Below, piece by piece: positions 12,717 to 31,059 of a stretch of DNA of 64,000 nt. The DNA is taken from contig NZ_CP104900.1 of the NCBI RefSeq assembly GCF_025449215.1, forward strand, positions 1,302,001-1,366,000, in the 5' to 3' direction. The notes beneath the pieces were generated by a model. That model was given only the letters and a program-made list of their open reading frames with translations. It had not been told where the DNA came from and did not search any database. Source of the DNA: Shewanella seohaensis. GTDB lineage: Bacteria; Pseudomonadota; Gammaproteobacteria; Enterobacterales; Shewanellaceae. Made by a program: the position numbers and the translations under genes. Numbering within the stretch: position 1 is the first letter of the stretch; every line of letters starts with the position of its first letter.

Positions 12717-12895
12717 TCCCGTAGGCTTGTTATGTGCTTAGCCTTTTAGCCGACAGAGTCTGCGCTAAAGGGCTGTATTGAGGTCAGTATGCCACCGACC
12801 TAGGCGAAGATGAAAGGCGTTGGGGGATTTTCTCTGGCAAGTCTGCGTAAATGGGGGCACACGGCGAGCAGCAAAGCATTCAGGCAAAGCATTCA

Positions 12896-12932
12896 CGCTA
12901 AGAGTTCACTCAATGGAATGAACCCTTAGCGG
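12896..12932. repeat. Hairpin downstream of the FapA gene
   Basis: Thirteen-bp arms CGCTAAGAGTTCA / TGAACCCTTAGCG with one mismatch and an 11-nt loop. It lies just past the minus-strand FapA stop. There is no T tail, so it may be a 3' stabilising structure rather than a true terminator. Confidence 0.45.
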
Positions 12933-12948
12933 GGGGATGATTGCCCCG

Positions 12949-14640
12949 TTAATGGCTTGCCGCTTGCGCCTTAGGTTTAGCGTTGTAATCGAAGTTAATC
13001 TCTTGATTAAGATTGGTGATTGAGCAAGTGCCATGTTCGCGGGTGGTTCTGTGATTGGCTTGACCAATATGGAACTCGGCATTGAGGAATACGTGCTTAA
13101 TCACATCGATACGATACTTGTCGTAGTAGGTTTCGACTTCTTGCTTGAGGCTATCGAACTCTAATTCTTCGCGGGAACGTTCACCTAAGATGCGATTCTT
13201 CTCATCGAGCATCATCTTGATCTGTTCGATCATGATAGGGTCGCTCTGCCATTCGGATTTCGGCGGCAGTTTTTTCAGGCGAGCCTCGATATCCAGCGTC
13301 GCTACCACCATTGCATGCACGCTCTCCTCCAGCTGCTTGAGATTCTGCTTGAGTTCGCCCTGTTCCATGGCGCAGTACACTTCGGTTTTGGTGCCTGCTG
13401 TTGCGCCAATCACGACGGCGGTGAGGCCTTTTTCGGCATGCACGACACCACCCACTAAGTCACCACGGCGGCCGCTCTGATCGCTTACTGTGAGCGTGCC
13501 TGCGGTTTTGGTATTACTGTGGAGTAATTGCTTAGTGATCAGAATATTACCCTTTGCTGTTAACTGGGAATATTGCACGAACTGGGCGCTGATCTGCCCC
13601 TGAGCCGTGATATTGGTGGAGAACTCATTCACTCTGACTTGGCGACCAATCACGCCCTTGCTCACCGTAATATCGCCATCGGCCTCGAGAGTTGCCGAAT
13701 CGACAAAGCCCATCACGGTAATATCGCCTGAACTTTTAACCATCATGCCTTCGTGTACATCGCCCGTGATTAAAATACTGCCTTTAAAGTTGATATGGCC
13801 GGTACTGATATCCACATCTTTAAGCTGCAACACATCGTCGACATTCATGCCCGTGCGGGTTTCAACGGGTTGGCCTGCCACTGTAGCGATGAGTTTATTG
13901 GGGTCTTTCGGGTGGAAGTCGGTACCAGTACCGGGTTGTAATACCAGATCTTTCCCCGGTTTTTGCTTAAGGACTTCGCCTTTAATGTTGTAGCCGGGAG
14001 ACCCTTCGGTCGCGGGATGCTTAATCATTAGCAGATCGTTGGGCTTAACCATGATCATCGCCCCGAGATTACGCATATCCACAGTGCCGTCTTCCCGCTC
14101 CTGCGGCTGCAATAGGCGTTCACGGGCGAGGGAAACCTTACGCTCCAGCACCGCATTTTGACCATTGATCGCGGCCTTACCTTGAGCGATATCACTCTGG
14201 CAGCTTTCACCCGGTTTTAACTTGGTCATTTTTTGCAGCAAGGTTTGGATCTTAAGCTTGCTTAAGCCCATGCAAACATTGTCTTTTTTAAGCTGCGTGA
14301 GGATTTCGGGTAAATCGACGGCTTTACCTCCCCAAGGGGCGGTTAAGATCATGGTGGCTTGCATTTTATCTTGGCTGAGCTCAATTTTTACGCTGCCATC
14401 GCGGCGCTCTGCCAATACGGCAAATAGCTCGTATTTACCATCTTCTTGATGGCATAGGGAATTGGTTTGCGCGATAACTTTATCTATCGCAGGCTCGAGG
14501 GGGAATAGGGCGGCGAACTCTGGCACGGACAATAAACGCATCACATCATCACGGGTAATGGGACCGTGTTCATTCGGAATTAAGCGTAATTCCGCCTTGG
14601 TTTTATCGCTGCTTAGCTCAAGAAGTTCAGGGGCCAACAT
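12949..14640 (-). CDS. FapA family protein (DUF342)
   Basis: 563 residues from ATG at 14640, chosen because AGGAAG sits 6 nt upstream; the frame extends further upstream but without ribosome-binding signal. The protein has an N-terminal globular part, a central right-handed beta-helix of glycine-rich repeats (DITVMGFVDSATLEADGDI; GNILITKQLL) and a C-terminal coiled coil near residues 430-510 (LKQNLKQLEESVHAMVVATL). This matches the FapA/DUF342 family, named for an unrelated Vibrio flagellar-pole role in some members; the precise function is not established for most. It appears monocistronic. Confidence 0.8.
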   Translation of the reverse strand: MLAPELLELSSDKTKAELRLIPNEHGPITRDDVMRLLSVPEFAALFPLEPAIDKVIAQTNSLCHQEDGKYELFAVLAERRDGSVKIELSQDKMQATMILTAPWGGKAVDLPEILTQLKKDNVCMGLSKLKIQTLLQKMTKLKPGESCQSDIAQGKAAINGQNAVLERKVSLARERLLQPQEREDGTVDMRNLGAMIMVKPNDLLMIKHPATEGSPGYNIKGEVLKQKPGKDLVLQPGTGTDFHPKDPNKLIATVAGQPVETRTGMNVDDVLQLKDVDISTGHINFKGSILITGDVHEGMMVKSSGDITVMGFVDSATLEADGDITVSKGVIGRQVRVNEFSTNITAQGQISAQFVQYSQLTAKGNILITKQLLHSNTKTAGTLTVSDQSGRRGDLVGGVVHAEKGLTAVVIGATAGTKTEVYCAMEQGELKQNLKQLEESVHAMVVATLDIEARLKKLPPKSEWQSDPIMIEQIKMMLDEKNRILGERSREELEFDSLKQEVETYYDKYRIDVIKHVFLNAEFHIGQANHRTTREHGTCSITNLNQEINFDYNAKPKAQAASH

Positions 14641-25457: not shown

Positions 25458-26063
25458 TTATTCGGCGGCTTCGATAAAGGTGAGGTGGGTATGGCAGCGT
25501 TTGCATAAATAACGGGTTTCACCACGCAGCACTTTATTATGGCGACGGATGCTCAGCCTAACCGGACCGCAGGCGCAGTGGTACTCAAAGTCTTTCCCTT
25601 TAACCGACTGAGTATCGAAACTGTGGGTGGTATTGGGGCTCACCTTAAACAGCTTGAGCATGATGGATTGCCACTCGCGGCCATGGGGCTTGGTTTTGCC
25701 AAAGAGTTGGAAACAGAGCAAATGGCTTATTTCGTGGGGCACCACGTCGGCTAAAAAGGCTTCGCTGTTTTCCCTGAGTAATACGGGATTAAAGCGCAGG
25801 CGATTCTGTTGCAAATGGGCCGTGCCCGCACTCCGTCCCCGCAGGGTAAATTGAGTTAGCGGCCGCGCAAATGGGCGCTTAAAGTAGATTTCCGCCTGCT
25901 GGTAACAGTCTTCGATGCGTACCAAGATTTGTTGCTGCAGGGGTGTCAGCGGTTTGGGCTGGCGTTGTGGCGTGGTCGAGTTAGCCGCCGTTGCTGAGGT
26001 GATACTTGCGGATGAGGTGGCTTTACGGCGCAGGCTATTGAGTAGGGATCTCGGGTTAAACAT
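25458..26063 (-). CDS. sprT: SprT family zinc metalloprotease
   Basis: 201 residues; E. coli SprT is about 165. The extra length is a low-complexity Ser/Ala/Thr-rich N-terminus (residues 12-38). The zinc motif HEISH is at residues 110-114, and the C-terminus has a zinc-ribbon-like CACG ... CKRCH. This is the SprT-like domain shared with Spartan proteases. The bacterial role is poorly defined. Gene order next to endA is common in gammaproteobacteria. Confidence 0.9.
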   Translation of the reverse strand: MFNPRSLLNSLRRKATSSASITSATAANSTTPQRQPKPLTPLQQQILVRIEDCYQQAEIYFKRPFARPLTQFTLRGRSAGTAHLQQNRLRFNPVLLRENSEAFLADVVPHEISHLLCFQLFGKTKPHGREWQSIMLKLFKVSPNTTHSFDTQSVKGKDFEYHCACGPVRLSIRRHNKVLRGETRYLCKRCHTHLTFIEAAE

Positions 26064-26243: not shown

Positions 26244-27401
26244 TTACAGGCTAGCGGCGGCCTGCATCACCATAGTACGCACTTGCTCGACGATGGCTTG
26301 TTCGGTGGCATTGTCGTAGCCCTTCACCCTTGGAGTGTGGATATGGCCGACCTTGGCTGGGCTGTTGAACTTTTGCTGTAACACAATGGCGCGATAAGAA
26401 ATCTCGTTTGAGAGATAGCCACCGCCAGAACCTTCGACCGAGGTTTCATTTTGCAGCTCGCTTAGGGAGCTGGCATTAAATTCGCCGCGAGCTAGTGTGG
26501 TCACTGTATGGTTGTCGTTGACTTTCCATTGGCCGTCTTTGACCTGCATGGCGGCGACGGGCAGTGAAAACTCAACAAACTCAGGGCCGATAAAGTCTTT
26601 ACCATTGAGTTTGGGGGCGACAGGCGCGGTTTTGCTTCCGCCTGTGTACAGATTTTGGTTATCCGGCGCGGCGGCGCTACGGTTACGGCCGGGGAAGCGT
26701 TCAATATCAAAGTCACTGCGGCCCATGCTGACGGTAAAGACAAACTGGGTTTTAGGATCGCGGTAAATGGGGCTGAGTAAGGATTCGATAATGCCTTGGT
26801 CAAAATCCTCGAAGCGCACTGGGATCATTGCGGTTTCGATTTGGGCTTTCTTGCCGTTGATATCAAACCTAAAGCCATCGAGGGCGAGGGCGACCAAGCC
26901 TGAAGGATTGCTCTGGCTGATGTCTTTATCGAGGAAGAAAGGGTCGAATCCTGTCAGGAAGATTTTTATCTGCACATCGTCGCCGTATTGGATATCGCTA
27001 AAACCGCGTGATGCCTTTTCGACGGCGCTGGCTAAAATGTTCTGTTGCCAATCGGCCATTTTGAAATTGGCGCTATTGCTCTTGATGCTATTTAACATTG
27101 AGAGCCGAGCCCAGTAGAGGGATCTGTCGTCAAAGTGCCCTGACTGCACATCACGCACCGCCTGTTGCCACAGCCTATGCCCTTGGCGGGCTGCAAGTTG
27201 GGTTGCATCGCGTTCATTCTTCTGTGCGGAAAGCTGAGTCGCCAAGCCTTCGTCCAAGGCTTGATAGCGGTTGACCACTTCTGCCATGGTTTTTTCTGCA
27301 GTGGGAACGCGGGAAACTTCCACATCTCCAAGGAGTTGTACGGCAGATGCGGTTTGCGCCACTGTGCTGGCGAGGATAAAAACGAGGCTGGGCTTTAACA
27401 T
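26244..27401 (-). CDS. Secreted C15-like (pyroglutamyl-peptidase-related) protein
   Basis: 385 residues with a signal peptide (VFILASTVAQTASA). The core has KIFLTGFDPFFLDKDISQSNPSG, matching the GFdPF...NPS start of C15 pyroglutamyl peptidases, followed by VFTVSMGRSDFDIERF. The usual GxxxCNxxxY catalytic Cys motif was not found; the corresponding segment is SNEISYRAIVL, so Cys appears replaced by Asn-Glu. Activity is therefore doubtful. In Shewanella this 'c15' gene is the known upstream neighbour of OXA-48-like beta-lactamase genes, and it is divergent from bla here too. Confidence 0.8.
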   Translation of the reverse strand: MLKPSLVFILASTVAQTASAVQLLGDVEVSRVPTAEKTMAEVVNRYQALDEGLATQLSAQKNERDATQLAARQGHRLWQQAVRDVQSGHFDDRSLYWARLSMLNSIKSNSANFKMADWQQNILASAVEKASRGFSDIQYGDDVQIKIFLTGFDPFFLDKDISQSNPSGLVALALDGFRFDINGKKAQIETAMIPVRFEDFDQGIIESLLSPIYRDPKTQFVFTVSMGRSDFDIERFPGRNRSAAAPDNQNLYTGGSKTAPVAPKLNGKDFIGPEFVEFSLPVAAMQVKDGQWKVNDNHTVTTLARGEFNASSLSELQNETSVEGSGGGYLSNEISYRAIVLQQKFNSPAKVGHIHTPRVKGYDNATEQAIVEQVRTMVMQAAASL

Positions 27402-27750: not shown

Positions 27751-28548
27751 ATGCGTGCGTTAGCCTTATCGGCTGTGTTGATGGTGACAACGATGATTGG
27801 CATGCCTGCGGTGGCGAAGGAGTGGCAAGAGAACAAGAGCTGGAATGCTCACTTTAGCGAACATAAAACCCAAGGCGTGGTTGTGCTTTGGAACGAGAAT
27901 ACACAGCAGGGTTTTACTAACGATCTTAAACGGGCAAACCAAGCATTTTTACCTGCATCGACCTTTAAGATCCCAAACAGTTTAATTGCCTTGGACTTAG
28001 GTGTGGTTAAGGATGAGCATCAAGTCTTTAAATGGGATGGACAGACGCGAGATGTCGCCGCATGGAATCGCGACCATGATTTAATCACCGCGATGAAGTA
28101 CTCGGTTGTGCCTGTTTATCAAGAATTTGCCCGCCAAATTGGTGAGGCACGTATGAGTAAAATGCTGCACGCCTTCGATTATGGCAATGAGGATATCTCG
28201 GGCAATTTAGACAGTTTTTGGCTCGATGGTGGTATTCGCATTTCGGCTACCCAGCAAATCGCTTTTTTACGCAAGCTCTACCACAACAAGTTGCACGTTT
28301 CTGAGCGTAGTCAGCGCATCGTCAAACAAGCCATGCTGACCGAGGCAAATGCCGATTATATTATCCGAGCGAAAACTGGCTATTCGGTCAGAATTGAACC
28401 GAAAATCGGTTGGTGGGTTGGCTGGGTCGAACTGGATGACAATGTGTGGTTCTTCGCGACCAATATGGATATGCCTTCCGCTGAGGGCTTAGGGTTGCGT
28501 CAAAGCATTACGAAAGCTGTGCTGAAACAGGAAAAAATTATTCCTTAG
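27751..28548 (+). CDS. blaOXA: OXA-48-family class D beta-lactamase (chromosomal)
   Basis: 265 residues, the same length as OXA-48. Signal peptide (MIGMPAVA), active-site Ser70-Thr-Phe-Lys73, Ser118-Val-Val, Tyr144-Gly-Asn, Trp157, Lys208-Thr-Gly, and the beta5-beta6 loop YSVRIEPKIGW with Arg214 present. Numbering coincides with OXA-48. Compared with OXA-48 from memory, differences include Val213 (Thr in OXA-48), Leu153 and scattered N- and C-terminal changes. OXA-48-type enzymes hydrolyse penicillins and weakly carbapenems. Shewanella species are the recognised source of this family, and this copy sits in the native c15-bla-lysR-acc context, interrupted downstream by an IS. The exact allele needs a database match. 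Confidence 0.96.
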   Translation: MRALALSAVLMVTTMIGMPAVAKEWQENKSWNAHFSEHKTQGVVVLWNENTQQGFTNDLKRANQAFLPASTFKIPNSLIALDLGVVKDEHQVFKWDGQTRDVAAWNRDHDLITAMKYSVVPVYQEFARQIGEARMSKMLHAFDYGNEDISGNLDSFWLDGGIRISATQQIAFLRKLYHNKLHVSERSQRIVKQAMLTEANADYIIRAKTGYSVRIEPKIGWWVGWVELDDNVWFFATNMDMPSAEGLGLRQSITKAVLKQEKIIP

Positions 28549-28728
28549 AAGTGGTTAGCGGCGCATTTGTGTTAAATACCAGTCAAATAAGCTGTAAAGA
28601 TATATGGACAAAATGCTTAAAATCGATGCGCTTACAGCTAATTACTCATATTTAATTAGGTTAGGCCCAATCTACAGATGTTAAGCATTAACAGTCAGTC
28701 TGAGCATTAGCACCTCATTCCTAAACGC

Positions 28729-28759
28729 AAAAAGCCTAGTGAATTCGCTAGGCTTTTTT
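28729..28759 (+). terminator. Terminator between blaOXA and the IS element
   Basis: An 11-bp stem AAAAAGCCTAG / CTAGGCTTTTT with an 8-nt loop, ending in T6. It lies 9 bp before the left end of the IS. Confidence 0.8.
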
Positions 28760-28808
28760 GTTATCTCTGTCTCGTCCTGAAATACGTTGACATAAAGAGG
28801 ATTTCTTT

Positions 28809-29204
28809 ATGACAACATCAATTAACTCAAGCCGTAAGCGCACACAACGAGATTACACCTTAGCCTTTAAATTAGGCGTTGTAGAGCGTGTTGAAAAAGG
28901 CGAAATGACGTACAAACAAGCCCAAGCCCATTTTGGTATTCAAGGCCGTTCAACGGTACTCGTTTGGCTTAGAAAACATGGTAGACTCGATTGGTCGAAA
29001 CCTTTTCAGCATCCCCTTATGCCTAAGTCAAAAGAAACCCCTGCCGAAACGATCAAGCGCCTTGAACGTGAGTTAGCAGAAGAGAAACTGCGTAACCAAA
29101 TCCTCAATGGCATGGTTGATATCATGGACAATGAATATGGAGCAGGCCTCAGAAAAAAGTACTTATCCGGTACATCTGGCAAGCAAAAGGCAACGGAGAA
29201 ATAA
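28809..29204 (+). CDS. IS3-family transposase OrfA
   Basis: 131 residues. It has an N-terminal helix-turn-helix of the HTH_Tnp_1 type (RDYTLAFKLGVVERVEKGEMTYKQAQAHFGIQGRSTVLVWLR region) and a C-terminal leucine-zipper-like coiled coil (ETIKRLERELAEEKLRNQIL). OrfA binds the IS ends and regulates transposition. A slippery A-AAA-AAG heptamer lies in frame at 29153-29159, allowing a -1 shift into orfB to make the OrfAB transposase. Confidence 0.92.
   Translation: MTTSINSSRKRTQRDYTLAFKLGVVERVEKGEMTYKQAQAHFGIQGRSTVLVWLRKHGRLDWSKPFQHPLMPKSKETPAETIKRLERELAEEKLRNQILNGMVDIMDNEYGAGLRKKYLSGTSGKQKATEK
29153..29159 (+). promoter_or_regulatory. Programmed -1 frameshift site (A-AAA-AAG) of the IS
   Basis: The heptamer is in the zero frame of orfA (codons AGA AAA AAG). 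A -1 slip reads on as KKVLIRYIWQAKGN and joins the orfB frame without a stop, which matches known IS3-family and dnaX signals. Confidence 0.8.
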
Positions 29205-29233
29205 ACCTCGCTGCCGCATGTCGTGCTGCGGGT

Positions 29234-30037
29234 ATGTCGAGGCAAGGTATTTATCAGGCAGTTGCTCGAATGGAAAGTCGTAGAGCTGAGCTATCGGTCA
29301 TCCAAGACTGGGTCCAGTACTGGCGTAAATATATGCCAAGGTTAGGGGCCCGTAAGCTCTACACGTTGATAAAATCCAGGCTGGTTGAGCACGATATTAA
29401 ACTCGGGCGAGATGGGTTCTTTACCTATTTGAGAAGTGAAGGTTTACTGCTTAAACCAAAGAAAAGCTACACAAAAACCACGTTCAGCAAACACTGGATG
29501 AAGAAGCATCCTAATCTGCTGAAAGAGGAAGGACTGCATGATGCAGGGCATGTACTGGTCAGTGATATCACCTATCTTGAGTCAGACCAAGGTGTGCACT
29601 ACCTGTCACTGGTCACCGATGCGAGTTCGCGTAAGATAGTCGGTCATCACGTGAGTAAAGACATGAAAGCCGAGAGTGTGGTGAAAGCGTTAAAAATGGC
29701 CATCAAAGATAAACGCTATATCGGCAACGCGGTGCATCACTCAGACAGAGGTTTACAGTACTGCTCAGCTGTTTATCAGAATGCGCTTCAGGCGAGCCAA
29801 ATCCAGCCGTCAATGACGGATGGTTATGATTGCTACCAAAATGCATTAGCAGAAAGAGTGAATGGCATACTGAAGCAGGAGTTTTTACTGCACCGATGTA
29901 GGACATTTGCGGAGCTGAAAATACTTGTTAGAGAATCGATAGCAATATACAACGATATGAGACCGCATCTGAGTTTGAATATGGCAACCCCTAATCAGGT
30001 GCACAATAGAAAAGGCCAGCTACTGGAGCTGGCCTAA
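29234..30037 (+). CDS. IS3-family transposase OrfB (DDE integrase domain)
   Basis: 267 residues from ATG at 29234; the frame opens upstream to the slippery site, so the active product is probably the OrfAB fusion. An HTH_21 segment (KYMPRLGARKLYTLIKSRL) precedes the rve catalytic core with Asp in VSDITYLES, Asp in HHSDRGLQY and Glu in ALAERVNGILKQEF (DDE triad), plus the usual C-terminal YNDMRPHLSLNMATP. It catalyses copy-out/paste-in transposition. All catalytic residues are present. Confidence 0.93.
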   Translation: MSRQGIYQAVARMESRRAELSVIQDWVQYWRKYMPRLGARKLYTLIKSRLVEHDIKLGRDGFFTYLRSEGLLLKPKKSYTKTTFSKHWMKKHPNLLKEEGLHDAGHVLVSDITYLESDQGVHYLSLVTDASSRKIVGHHVSKDMKAESVVKALKMAIKDKRYIGNAVHHSDRGLQYCSAVYQNALQASQIQPSMTDGYDCYQNALAERVNGILKQEFLLHRCRTFAELKILVRESIAIYNDMRPHLSLNMATPNQVHNRKGQLLELA

Positions 30038-30147
30038 AAACTGTCAACCTATCTTAGGACGAGACACTCAATTGGGTCACTCAACGTAGGGATGTGAATC
30101 AAGGAGAGGCGATGTAGGTAAAGGAGAGTGCCGCTGCGATAAAGTGC

Positions 30148-31059
30148 TTAGCCCATCAAGGATTGCAGGCTTTCTTGGCTGCTAAAGCGTTTGACGAAAA
30201 AGTCCAAGAAGGCACTGATATTAGTGGCTAATTGGCGACGACTGGAATATACCCCATAGACCTTAAAGGGTTCGATTGGCCATTCTTGTAGTATGGGAAC
30301 CAGTTGACCATTCGCTAATTCCGTCTTGCAGGCGGAGTTGGACAGCATGGCAATCCCAAAGTCATCGAGGGCTAACTGCTTGACCATAATAGGGCTATTA
30401 ACCCTAACCTTACGTTGAAAATTCACCATGGTCTTACGCGCGCCTTTACCCAGTGGCCAAATAGGCGCTGAGCGTGATGTCCCGAGTAAGATGCCACTGT
30501 GCTCACTTAATTCCTTGGGGGTTGCAGGTGTGCCTCGGGCTTTTAAATAGGCCGGGCTTGCCACGAGAATGGGTTGGCGCTCGAACAGTAATCTTGCAAC
30601 AAGATCAGAGGATTGCAGTGGCCCATATTTGATAGCTATGTCATATCCTTCACCCACTAAACCGATATCGTTGTCGGTAAACTGGACATCTAATTCCACA
30701 TTGGGATATAAACGCATGAATCCGCTACAGAGGTTAGCGATTAATTCTTGGCTAAAAGAGACTGGAATAGCTATCCGTAATGATCCTGACACATCATCAT
30801 GGGTACTCTCGATAACAGCCTTGGCCGCTTCCACCTCATTGCGAATGGAATCACAGTGTTGATAAAAGAGGGCCCCGACTTGAGTAAGGCTTAAGTTGCG
30901 GGTGTCGCGTTGTAATAATCGCACGCCAAGTTCTTCTTCGAGCTGCGCGATTTTGCGACTTATGGTGGATTTTGGGTGGCCGGTTTCACGTGCAGCTTGG
31001 GAGAATCCCTTCGCTCTAACTACGGCTGCAAATAGCATCATACCGTTTAAATCTGGCAT
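30148..31059 (-). CDS. LysR-family transcriptional regulator next to blaOXA
   Basis: 303 residues. It has an N-terminal winged HTH (GFSQAARETGHPKSTISRKIAQLEEELGVRLLQRDTR) and a C-terminal LysR substrate domain (SGSLRIAIPVSFSQELIANL). This is the lysR that normally follows OXA-48-like genes in Shewanella and is found truncated in Tn1999-type plasmid elements; here it is full length. It is convergent with bla and the IS, and divergent from the acetyl-CoA carboxylase gene. Control of that gene would fit its position but is not shown. Confidence 0.92.
   Translation of the reverse strand: MPDLNGMMLFAAVVRAKGFSQAARETGHPKSTISRKIAQLEEELGVRLLQRDTRNLSLTQVGALFYQHCDSIRNEVEAAKAVIESTHDDVSGSLRIAIPVSFSQELIANLCSGFMRLYPNVELDVQFTDNDIGLVGEGYDIAIKYGPLQSSDLVARLLFERQPILVASPAYLKARGTPATPKELSEHSGILLGTSRSAPIWPLGKGARKTMVNFQRKVRVNSPIMVKQLALDDFGIAMLSNSACKTELANGQLVPILQEWPIEPFKVYGVYSSRRQLATNISAFLDFFVKRFSSQESLQSLMG

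What the first reader, a model, noticed from the sequence alone, without database searches (positions are those of the whole stretch)
27751..28548. OXA-48-like beta-lactamase in the native progenitor locus
The gene keeps the native Shewanella order c15-bla-lysR-acc, the proposed source of plasmid OXA-48. The enzyme has all catalytic motifs and Arg214, but Val at position 213 in the beta5-beta6 loop, where OXA-48 has Thr, as well as other changes. That loop influences carbapenem hydrolysis.
Basis: partly seen in the sequence, partly recalled or inferred. Interest (0 to 1): 0.7.

Follow-up and report, generated by a model that had tools for sequence, protein, structure and literature searches.

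The report
Terminator-seeking insertion element beside OXA-436-like gene
The resistance gene is an ordinary chromosomal Shewanella relative of the known enzyme OXA-436, but the jumping element that sits just after it belongs to a widespread group that lands a fixed distance past the stop signals of transcription, which looks like a way of choosing safe landing sites.

Summary
The beta-lactamase is real: an intact OXA-48-family gene (27751-28548) with all motifs, Arg214 and Val213. It is not a new kind of enzyme. It differs from plasmid enzyme OXA-436 by 4 residues; Val213 is already published for OXA-436 with structure and kinetics, and is the usual residue (26 of 30 homologues aligned). The claimed gene order is interrupted: a 1,299-bp IS3-family element (28768-30066), absent from 12 related Shewanella loci and from pOXA436, lies between bla and lysR. 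That element is the interesting part. It sits 14 nt past the start of the T-run of the terminator behind bla. With a fixed detector, 41 of 46 Shewanella copies, then 31 of 31 further copies, have a terminator at the left end; 0 of 40 and 0 of 31 right ends do, nor 0 of 16 copies of three other IS3 elements. Kin in other genera (21 of 28 loci, 3 of these Shewanella), on plasmids (6 of 7, Flavobacterium and Burkholderia included) and in E. coli (4 of 9) show it less uniformly. Best reading: an IS3-family clade, ISSen1 included, that targets intrinsic terminators by a fixed ruler. Six text searches of the held papers found no description; ISfinder and most subscription journals were out of reach.

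The parts
25458..26063 (-). SprT-family gene, outer gene of the native locus
   Evidence: 98.4% DNA identity to the gene annotated SprT family on pOXA436
26244..27401 (-). C15-peptidase-like gene (c15)
   Evidence: PF01470 33.7 bits over its cut-off 22.7
27751..28548 (+). OXA-48-family beta-lactamase of the OXA-436 lineage
   Evidence: NF000387 591 bits over cut-off 580; motifs; 4 residues from OXA-436
28729..28759 (+). Intrinsic terminator behind bla: A-run, GC stem 28734-28753, T-run 28754-28759
   Evidence: Stretch 28726-28767 folds at -18.6 kcal/mol; the spacer hairpin is found in 12 of 13 related loci examined, not in L008
28765..28767 (.). Left copy of the 3-bp target duplication CTC
28768..30066 (+). 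IS3-family element, 1,299 bp; left end 14 nt from the T-run start
   Evidence: inverted repeats TGTCTCGTCC / GGACGAGACA, six copies in the genome
28809..29204 (+). orfA, helix-turn-helix protein; A6G slippery site at 29153
   Evidence: PF13518; slippery site
29234..30037 (+). orfB, DDE transposase; its frame is open from 29135, in -1 register to orfA
   Evidence: NF033516 226 bits over cut-off 160; D111, D171, E207, spacing 35
30067..30069 (.). Right copy of the target duplication CTC
30148..31059 (-). LysR-type regulator gene, convergent to bla
   Evidence: PF03466 and PF00126
31179..35735 (+).

Best explanation
Two things lie here. (a) An ordinary chromosomal class D beta-lactamase of the OXA-436 lineage at its native Shewanella locus; from family membership it is expected to hydrolyse penicillins and, weakly, carbapenems (inferred, not tested). 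(b) An insertion of an IS3-family element into the bla-lysR spacer. The element belongs to a clade that takes intrinsic (Rho-independent) terminators as targets: the left end is placed 14-15 nt (in one set of relatives 16-18 nt) downstream of the base of the GC stem, past the T-run, in one orientation, usually with a 3-bp target duplication, leaving the terminator intact. Shown by sequence: the fixed distance, the orientation, that a T-run without hairpin does not account for the sites, and that the elements form one clade. Inferred: that the transposase itself does the recognising, and that the benefit is a safe site, harmless to the upstream gene and shielded from outside transcription. Not settled: whether the DNA, the RNA hairpin or the stalled polymerase is sensed; I favour DNA (about 0.6) over a transcription-coupled mode (about 0.25).
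For: 41 of 46 Shewanella left flanks carry hairpin plus T-run within 20 nt of the end; right flanks 0 of 40; window background 708 of 127,880 positions. Further copies with the detector unchanged: left 31 of 31, right 0 of 31. Of these 77 sites 72 have the terminator at 12-18 nt: 53 at mean 14.3, SD 0.55, and 19 at mean 17.2, SD 0.52; one similar flank pair among the 77. T5 runs: hairpin before 59 of 61 used ones, 17 of 120 in the window. Other IS3 elements 0 of 16. OrfB tree: 33 labelled rows on one side of a branch, 100/100, from 6 control rows. Empty site with the same terminator in relatives. Lactamase.
Against: Not every copy fits: in the first set L099 and L101 have a T-run without a hairpin, L127, L130 and L133 have no detected terminator. 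Relatives: 21 of 28 by detector; E. coli 4 of 9 loci (8 sites), the other 5 loci including three annotated as frameshifted (L256, L257, L258), L259 likewise, and L261, which has a hairpin by eye only; Spirosoma L211 no; L264 no. Right flanks read in the same strand: 1 of 40. Controls come from three elements only, and two of the 16 control loci (L196, L197) share a left flank. The trait was read off resident copies, no transposition was observed.
Confidence: 0.8

Rival explanations
1. Survivorship: the element inserts almost anywhere, and only copies just past terminators persist because they break no gene.
For: The sites are largely outside genes, as a safe-site filter would give (inference from flanks).
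Against: A filter would not give an SD of about 0.5 nt nor a single orientation with 0 of 71 right ends at terminators; other IS3 elements in related genomes, under the same filter, show 0 of 16.
Confidence: 0.04
2. The element recognises a short sequence (G/C followed by a T-run), and terminators are hit only because they contain it.
For: 74 of 77 sites have a T-run at 12-18 nt, two of them (L099, L101) without a detected hairpin.
Against: Only 17 of 120 T5 runs in the window follow a hairpin, against 59 of 61 at used sites, Fisher p 2e-29; L191 and L193 have a hairpin by eye but no T-run.
Confidence: 0.1
3. One reading: the point of interest is the lactamase, with Val213 a new change in a carbapenemase loop.
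For: Val213 is present and lies in a loop that the OXA-436 authors link to the accommodation of different R1 groups (PMC8411929).
Against: Val213 is published for OXA-436 and is the majority state, 26 of 30; [quoted passage not shown]
Confidence: 0.05

Closest known systems
OXA-436 (plasmid pOXA436, NZ_KY863418; PDB 7oda by inference)
   Same: Family, motifs, Val213, Ala104, Asp110; same captured gene order on the plasmid
   Different: Four residues (102, 226, 243, 252); plasmid segment lacks the insertion element
ISSen1 (IS3 family, Salmonella; name from the plasmid annotation)
   Same: OrfB 48% identical; its copy in L207 lies 14 nt past a terminator
   Different: Inverted repeat TGACCCGTCC instead of TGTCTCGTCC; no target preference named in what I could read
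REP-targeting IS3 elements (IS1397, ISKpn1, ISPsy8)
   Same: IS3 family, palindromic extragenic targets, 3-bp duplication for ISPsy8 (PMC1525189, passages)
   Different: Target one repeat sequence and, for ISPsy8, insert at the axis of the hairpin; here the hairpins differ in sequence and the insertion is 14-18 nt beyond them
IS1272 and TnSha1 (IS1182 family)
   Same: Target hairpins, some of them terminators confirmed by RNA sequencing (PMC4923244, PMC5678879, passages)
   Different: Other transposase family; the stem-loop is removed, no target duplication, both orientations; 3 of 7 TnSha1 sites were predicted terminator hairpins

Membership tests
OXA-48-like beta-lactamase | Score over the curated family cut-off | tested here: met
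   591 bits, cut-off 580
OXA-48-like beta-lactamase | Class D catalytic motifs and Arg214 | tested here: met
OXA-48-like beta-lactamase | Carbapenem hydrolysis | not testable with these tools
   No assay; OXA-436, 4 residues away, is a carbapenemase (PMC8411929)
OXA-436 allele | Identical protein | tested here: not met
   4 differences
Native order c15-bla-lysR-acc | bla and lysR adjacent | tested here: not met
   IS3 element between them; the order of the genes themselves is kept
IS3 family | DDE transposase with spacing 35, two ORFs in -1 register with a slippery site | tested here: met
IS3 family | Terminal inverted repeats and short target duplication | tested here: met
   3-bp duplication in 34 of 40 and 30 of 31 copies with both ends
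REP-targeting IS3 elements (IS1397 type) | Insertion within a repeated palindromic sequence | tested here: not met
   72 of 77 sites lie 12-18 nt past the stem; upstream flanks unrelated except one pair
IS1272-type hairpin replacement | Stem-loop removed, no target duplication | tested here: not met
   Hairpin intact at 72 of 77 sites; duplications present

The most novel reading that the evidence does not exclude
A clade of IS3-family elements, found in Gammaproteobacteria, Burkholderia and Flavobacterium, uses transcription termination itself as its landing signal: the transposition complex engages the terminating polymerase or the nascent RNA hairpin and inserts at a fixed distance ahead of it. 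That would be a transcription-coupled targeting mode, independent of target sequence, that I know of for no IS3 element.
Probability: 0.25. Interest if true: 0.85.

Novelty: new variant of a known kind. Interest (0 to 1): 0.6.

Why it matters
The lactamase adds one more sequence to a well-described lineage. The element matters more. Landing sites of bacterial insertion sequences are mostly described as short sequences, REP repeats or RNA-guided sites (general knowledge). A clade that lands a fixed 14-18 nt past intrinsic terminators, in one orientation, uses an abundant safe site that differs in sequence each time, and makes a clear question testable: does a transposase sense DNA structure or the act of termination? 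It also predicts where such elements should be found in other genomes.

Tried and rejected
Val213 as a novelty: rejected. The window genome as sole progenitor of pOXA436: not supported; identity over the plasmid segment is 96.8% for the window, 96.3% for G083, 96.2% for G113 and 96.0% for ANA-3, over slightly different aligned lengths. Exact allele number: no allele database. The element in plasmids by near DNA search: no match; by protein 41 records. Papers: six of the ten text searches asked for terminator-targeting insertion sequences; the near precedents came and from one recalled DOI. A first T-run test (34 of 46) was too crude, as it failed sites whose fitted stem ran past the T-run; it was replaced by the detector, used unchanged afterwards. 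Since the rule was written after I had seen the first 46 flanks, the 31 are the fairer test. Symmetry: among terminators with a short A-run 10 sites have the T side towards the element, 2 the reverse type, but the detector demands a T-run, so this is weak.

Rows dropped or misread: a 62-bp second left end in L109, nested in another copy, was dropped before the count. One search scored at most three candidates per genome; short left-end fragments listed were not fetched, apart from those in G124, G101 and G063. L178 was scored at a wrong place by the script and stays a miss, though its left end has a hairpin and T-run by eye. L172 (8 nt) and L229 (7 nt) count as hits with a hairpin placement nearer to the end than the one seen by eye. 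In some searches the left ends of plasmid and class loci were found by a motif, and L212 and L262 had a second candidate without terminator. Five G271 loci (L244-L248) gave no match and were dropped as controls. OXA tree: DNA was held for 30 of the 56 genomes with a match; L042 was left out for an internal stop, L024 as a duplicate of the window, pOXA436 was added, 30 proteins in all. OrfB tree: 33 of 34 chosen clade rows, 6 of 6 controls, 10 of 12 untested rows; L114, L158 and L164 were skipped; labels are by element, so L099 bears the terminator label though that copy has no hairpin, and L178 and L193 bear it by eye.

Full report
WHAT WAS CHECKED. The gene at 27751-28548 is intact, 265 aa, and passes the curated cut-off of the OXA-48 family (591 over 580 bits). 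STFK (70), SVV (118), YGN (144), KTG (208), Trp105, Val213 and Arg214 are in place. The window lies in a 4.75-Mb genome held as one contig. It is in the same genus as G112, which has the contig length of Shewanella sp. ANA-3.

THE ENZYME IS NOT NEW IN KIND. Of 72,556 plasmid records 1,375 match, one of them at 95-99%: OXA-436 on pOXA436, 4 residues different. Among PDB chains the mature protein is nearest to 7oda, with differences at 102, 226, 243 and 252; that 7oda is OXA-436 I infer from the same four differences, the listing says only Beta-lactamase. The OXA-436 paper names Val213 against Thr213 of OXA-48, reports a meropenem efficiency fivefold better, a melting point of 53.8 against 55.2 degrees, and no significant difference in minimal inhibitory concentrations (PMC8411929, passages). 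In E. coli genomes all 307 matching records are at 80-90% DNA identity.

POSITION 213. In 30 aligned proteins Val is found in 26 and Thr in 4: L026 (ANA-3), L028, L030 (by its coordinates the S. xiamenensis locus) and L032. They are not one group; supported branches force at least 2 changes. Val is thus the likely older state and the Thr of OXA-48 the derived one (inference). What sets this protein apart among the 30 is Val102, where the other 29 have Ile or Tyr.

THE LOCUS IS INTERRUPTED. sprT, c15, bla, lysR and the large ORF follow in the same order as in relatives and, as far as captured, in pOXA436. Between bla and lysR lies a 1,299-bp element with CTC on both sides. None of the 14 other loci compared has it: 12 distinct Shewanella loci and pOXA436. 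The genome holds six copies. Two of them, at 2.578 and 2.582 Mb in opposite orientation, have exchanged duplications (TAT and CGC), as an inversion between them would leave. The other five copies lie more than a megabase from bla, so nothing here suggests that the element moves bla.

THE ELEMENT. OrfB scores 226 bits on the IS3-family model (cut-off 160); D111, D171 and E207 have the spacing 35, and A6G stands at 29153 in the overlap of the two frames.

WHERE IT LANDS. The left flanks of all six copies in this genome end in a GC hairpin, a T-run and a few bases. I then took 46 left ends from 19 Shewanella genomes (65-100% DNA identity): the detector finds a terminator within 20 nt at 41 of 46; at right flanks 0 of 40, and at right flanks read in the same strand 1 of 40; 708 of 127,880 positions of the window have one at 12-17 nt. 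Further copies from 6 of the 11 genomes re-searched were scored with the same detector: 31 of 31 left, 0 of 31 right. Together with the three G046 copies this covers every full-length copy listed. Three-base duplications: 34 of 40 and 30 of 31.

RULER. Of these 77 sites 72 have the terminator at 12-18 nt: 53 at 13-15 (mean 14.3, SD 0.55) and 19 at 16-18 (mean 17.2, SD 0.52), the latter mostly in relatives at 65-77% DNA identity. In the first group the distance varies less to the T-run start than to the loop centre (SD 1.06) or the 5' base (2.14); in the second group T-run start (0.52) and loop centre (0.50) do equally well. A T-run alone is not enough: a hairpin stands before 17 of 120 T5 runs in the window but before 59 of 61 at used sites. 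The misses are L099 and L101 (T-run, no detected hairpin) and L127, L130, L133. One pair of similar upstream flanks was found among the 77 (L063, L215).

HOW WIDE. Relatives with OrfB 43-85% identical: 21 of 28 by detector, 3 of 3 of these from Shewanella G046, hence 18 of 25 from other genera; by eye L168, L178, L190, L191 and L193 among the 7 misses also show a hairpin, L180 and L186 do not clearly. Plasmid loci, 7 picked from 41 records: E. coli, Salmonella (ISSen1), Acinetobacter, Flavobacterium, Pseudoalteromonas and Burkholderia yes, Spirosoma no, its candidate end lying beside another IS3-family gene. E. coli genomes, 9 loci picked from 1,009 matching records: 4 by detector, among them the dacB-cgtA spacer and places beside tRNA-Pro and rtT. 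Class-wide search: 2 of 3. Three other IS3 elements, OrfB about 31-35% identical: 0 of 16 loci. In the OrfB tree the 33 labelled rows lie on one side of a branch with 100/100 support; the Spirosoma row sits next to them on a long branch.

MECHANISM. Committed reading: the transposase complex recognises the terminator, most simply as DNA (stem base and T-tract), and joins 14-18 bp downstream; about 0.6 for a DNA-read and 0.25 for a transcription-coupled mode. For the first: hairpins without T-run seem to be used at times (L191, L193). For the second: the side is tied to the T-run and the structure, not the sequence, is shared. These are inferences. The gain is plausible: no gene is broken and the terminator shields the element.

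EFFECT HERE. bla keeps its terminator. lysR, convergent, is now cut off from that hairpin, which stands in the bla-lysR spacer of 12 of 13 related loci. Whether lysR or bla expression changes is unknown.

LITERATURE. Near precedents: REP-targeting IS3 elements (PMC1525189, passages) and hairpin-replacing IS1272 (PMC4923244, PMC5678879, passages). PMC11187229 and PMC9330008 (passages) gave nothing on terminators as targets of IS3 elements. Six text searches found no report of the fixed-distance pattern; this is no proof of novelty. On origin I read part 1 of section 12 of PMC12282331 (OXA-48-like genes in 216 of 638 Shewanella genomes, 18 variants), the outline of PMC13274421, and passages of PMC12442382, whose reference list gives a title naming OXA-535 as putative progenitor of OXA-436, and of PMC8875484.

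Noticed in passing
L064 and L065 (own genome, 2.578-2.582 Mb): Two copies of the element in opposite orientation have exchanged 3-bp duplications (TAT and CGC), as an inversion of the 2.3 kb between them would leave.
   Followed up: partly
window 28054-28056: Codon 102 of the lactamase gives Val; the other 29 aligned proteins have Ile or Tyr. Its effect is unknown.
   Followed up: partly
L023 (pOXA436) 12799-13076: The bla-lysR spacer of pOXA436 is nearest to that of S. decolorationis (93.9%) while its bla is nearest to G083 and the window, which hints at a mosaic donor.
   Followed up: partly
L109: In genome G025 a left end of one copy stands inside another copy after base 521, so the element also entered itself, at a place without terminator.
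   Followed up: no
G113 contig 2, 18038-18820 and 31507-32094: Two further OXA-type matches (48% and 35%) on a second contig of a relative that also has the chromosomal gene.
   Followed up: no
L026 (ANA-3), lactamase residue 213: ANA-3 has Thr213 although its nearest relatives have Val, a possible separate gain or recombination.
   Followed up: partly
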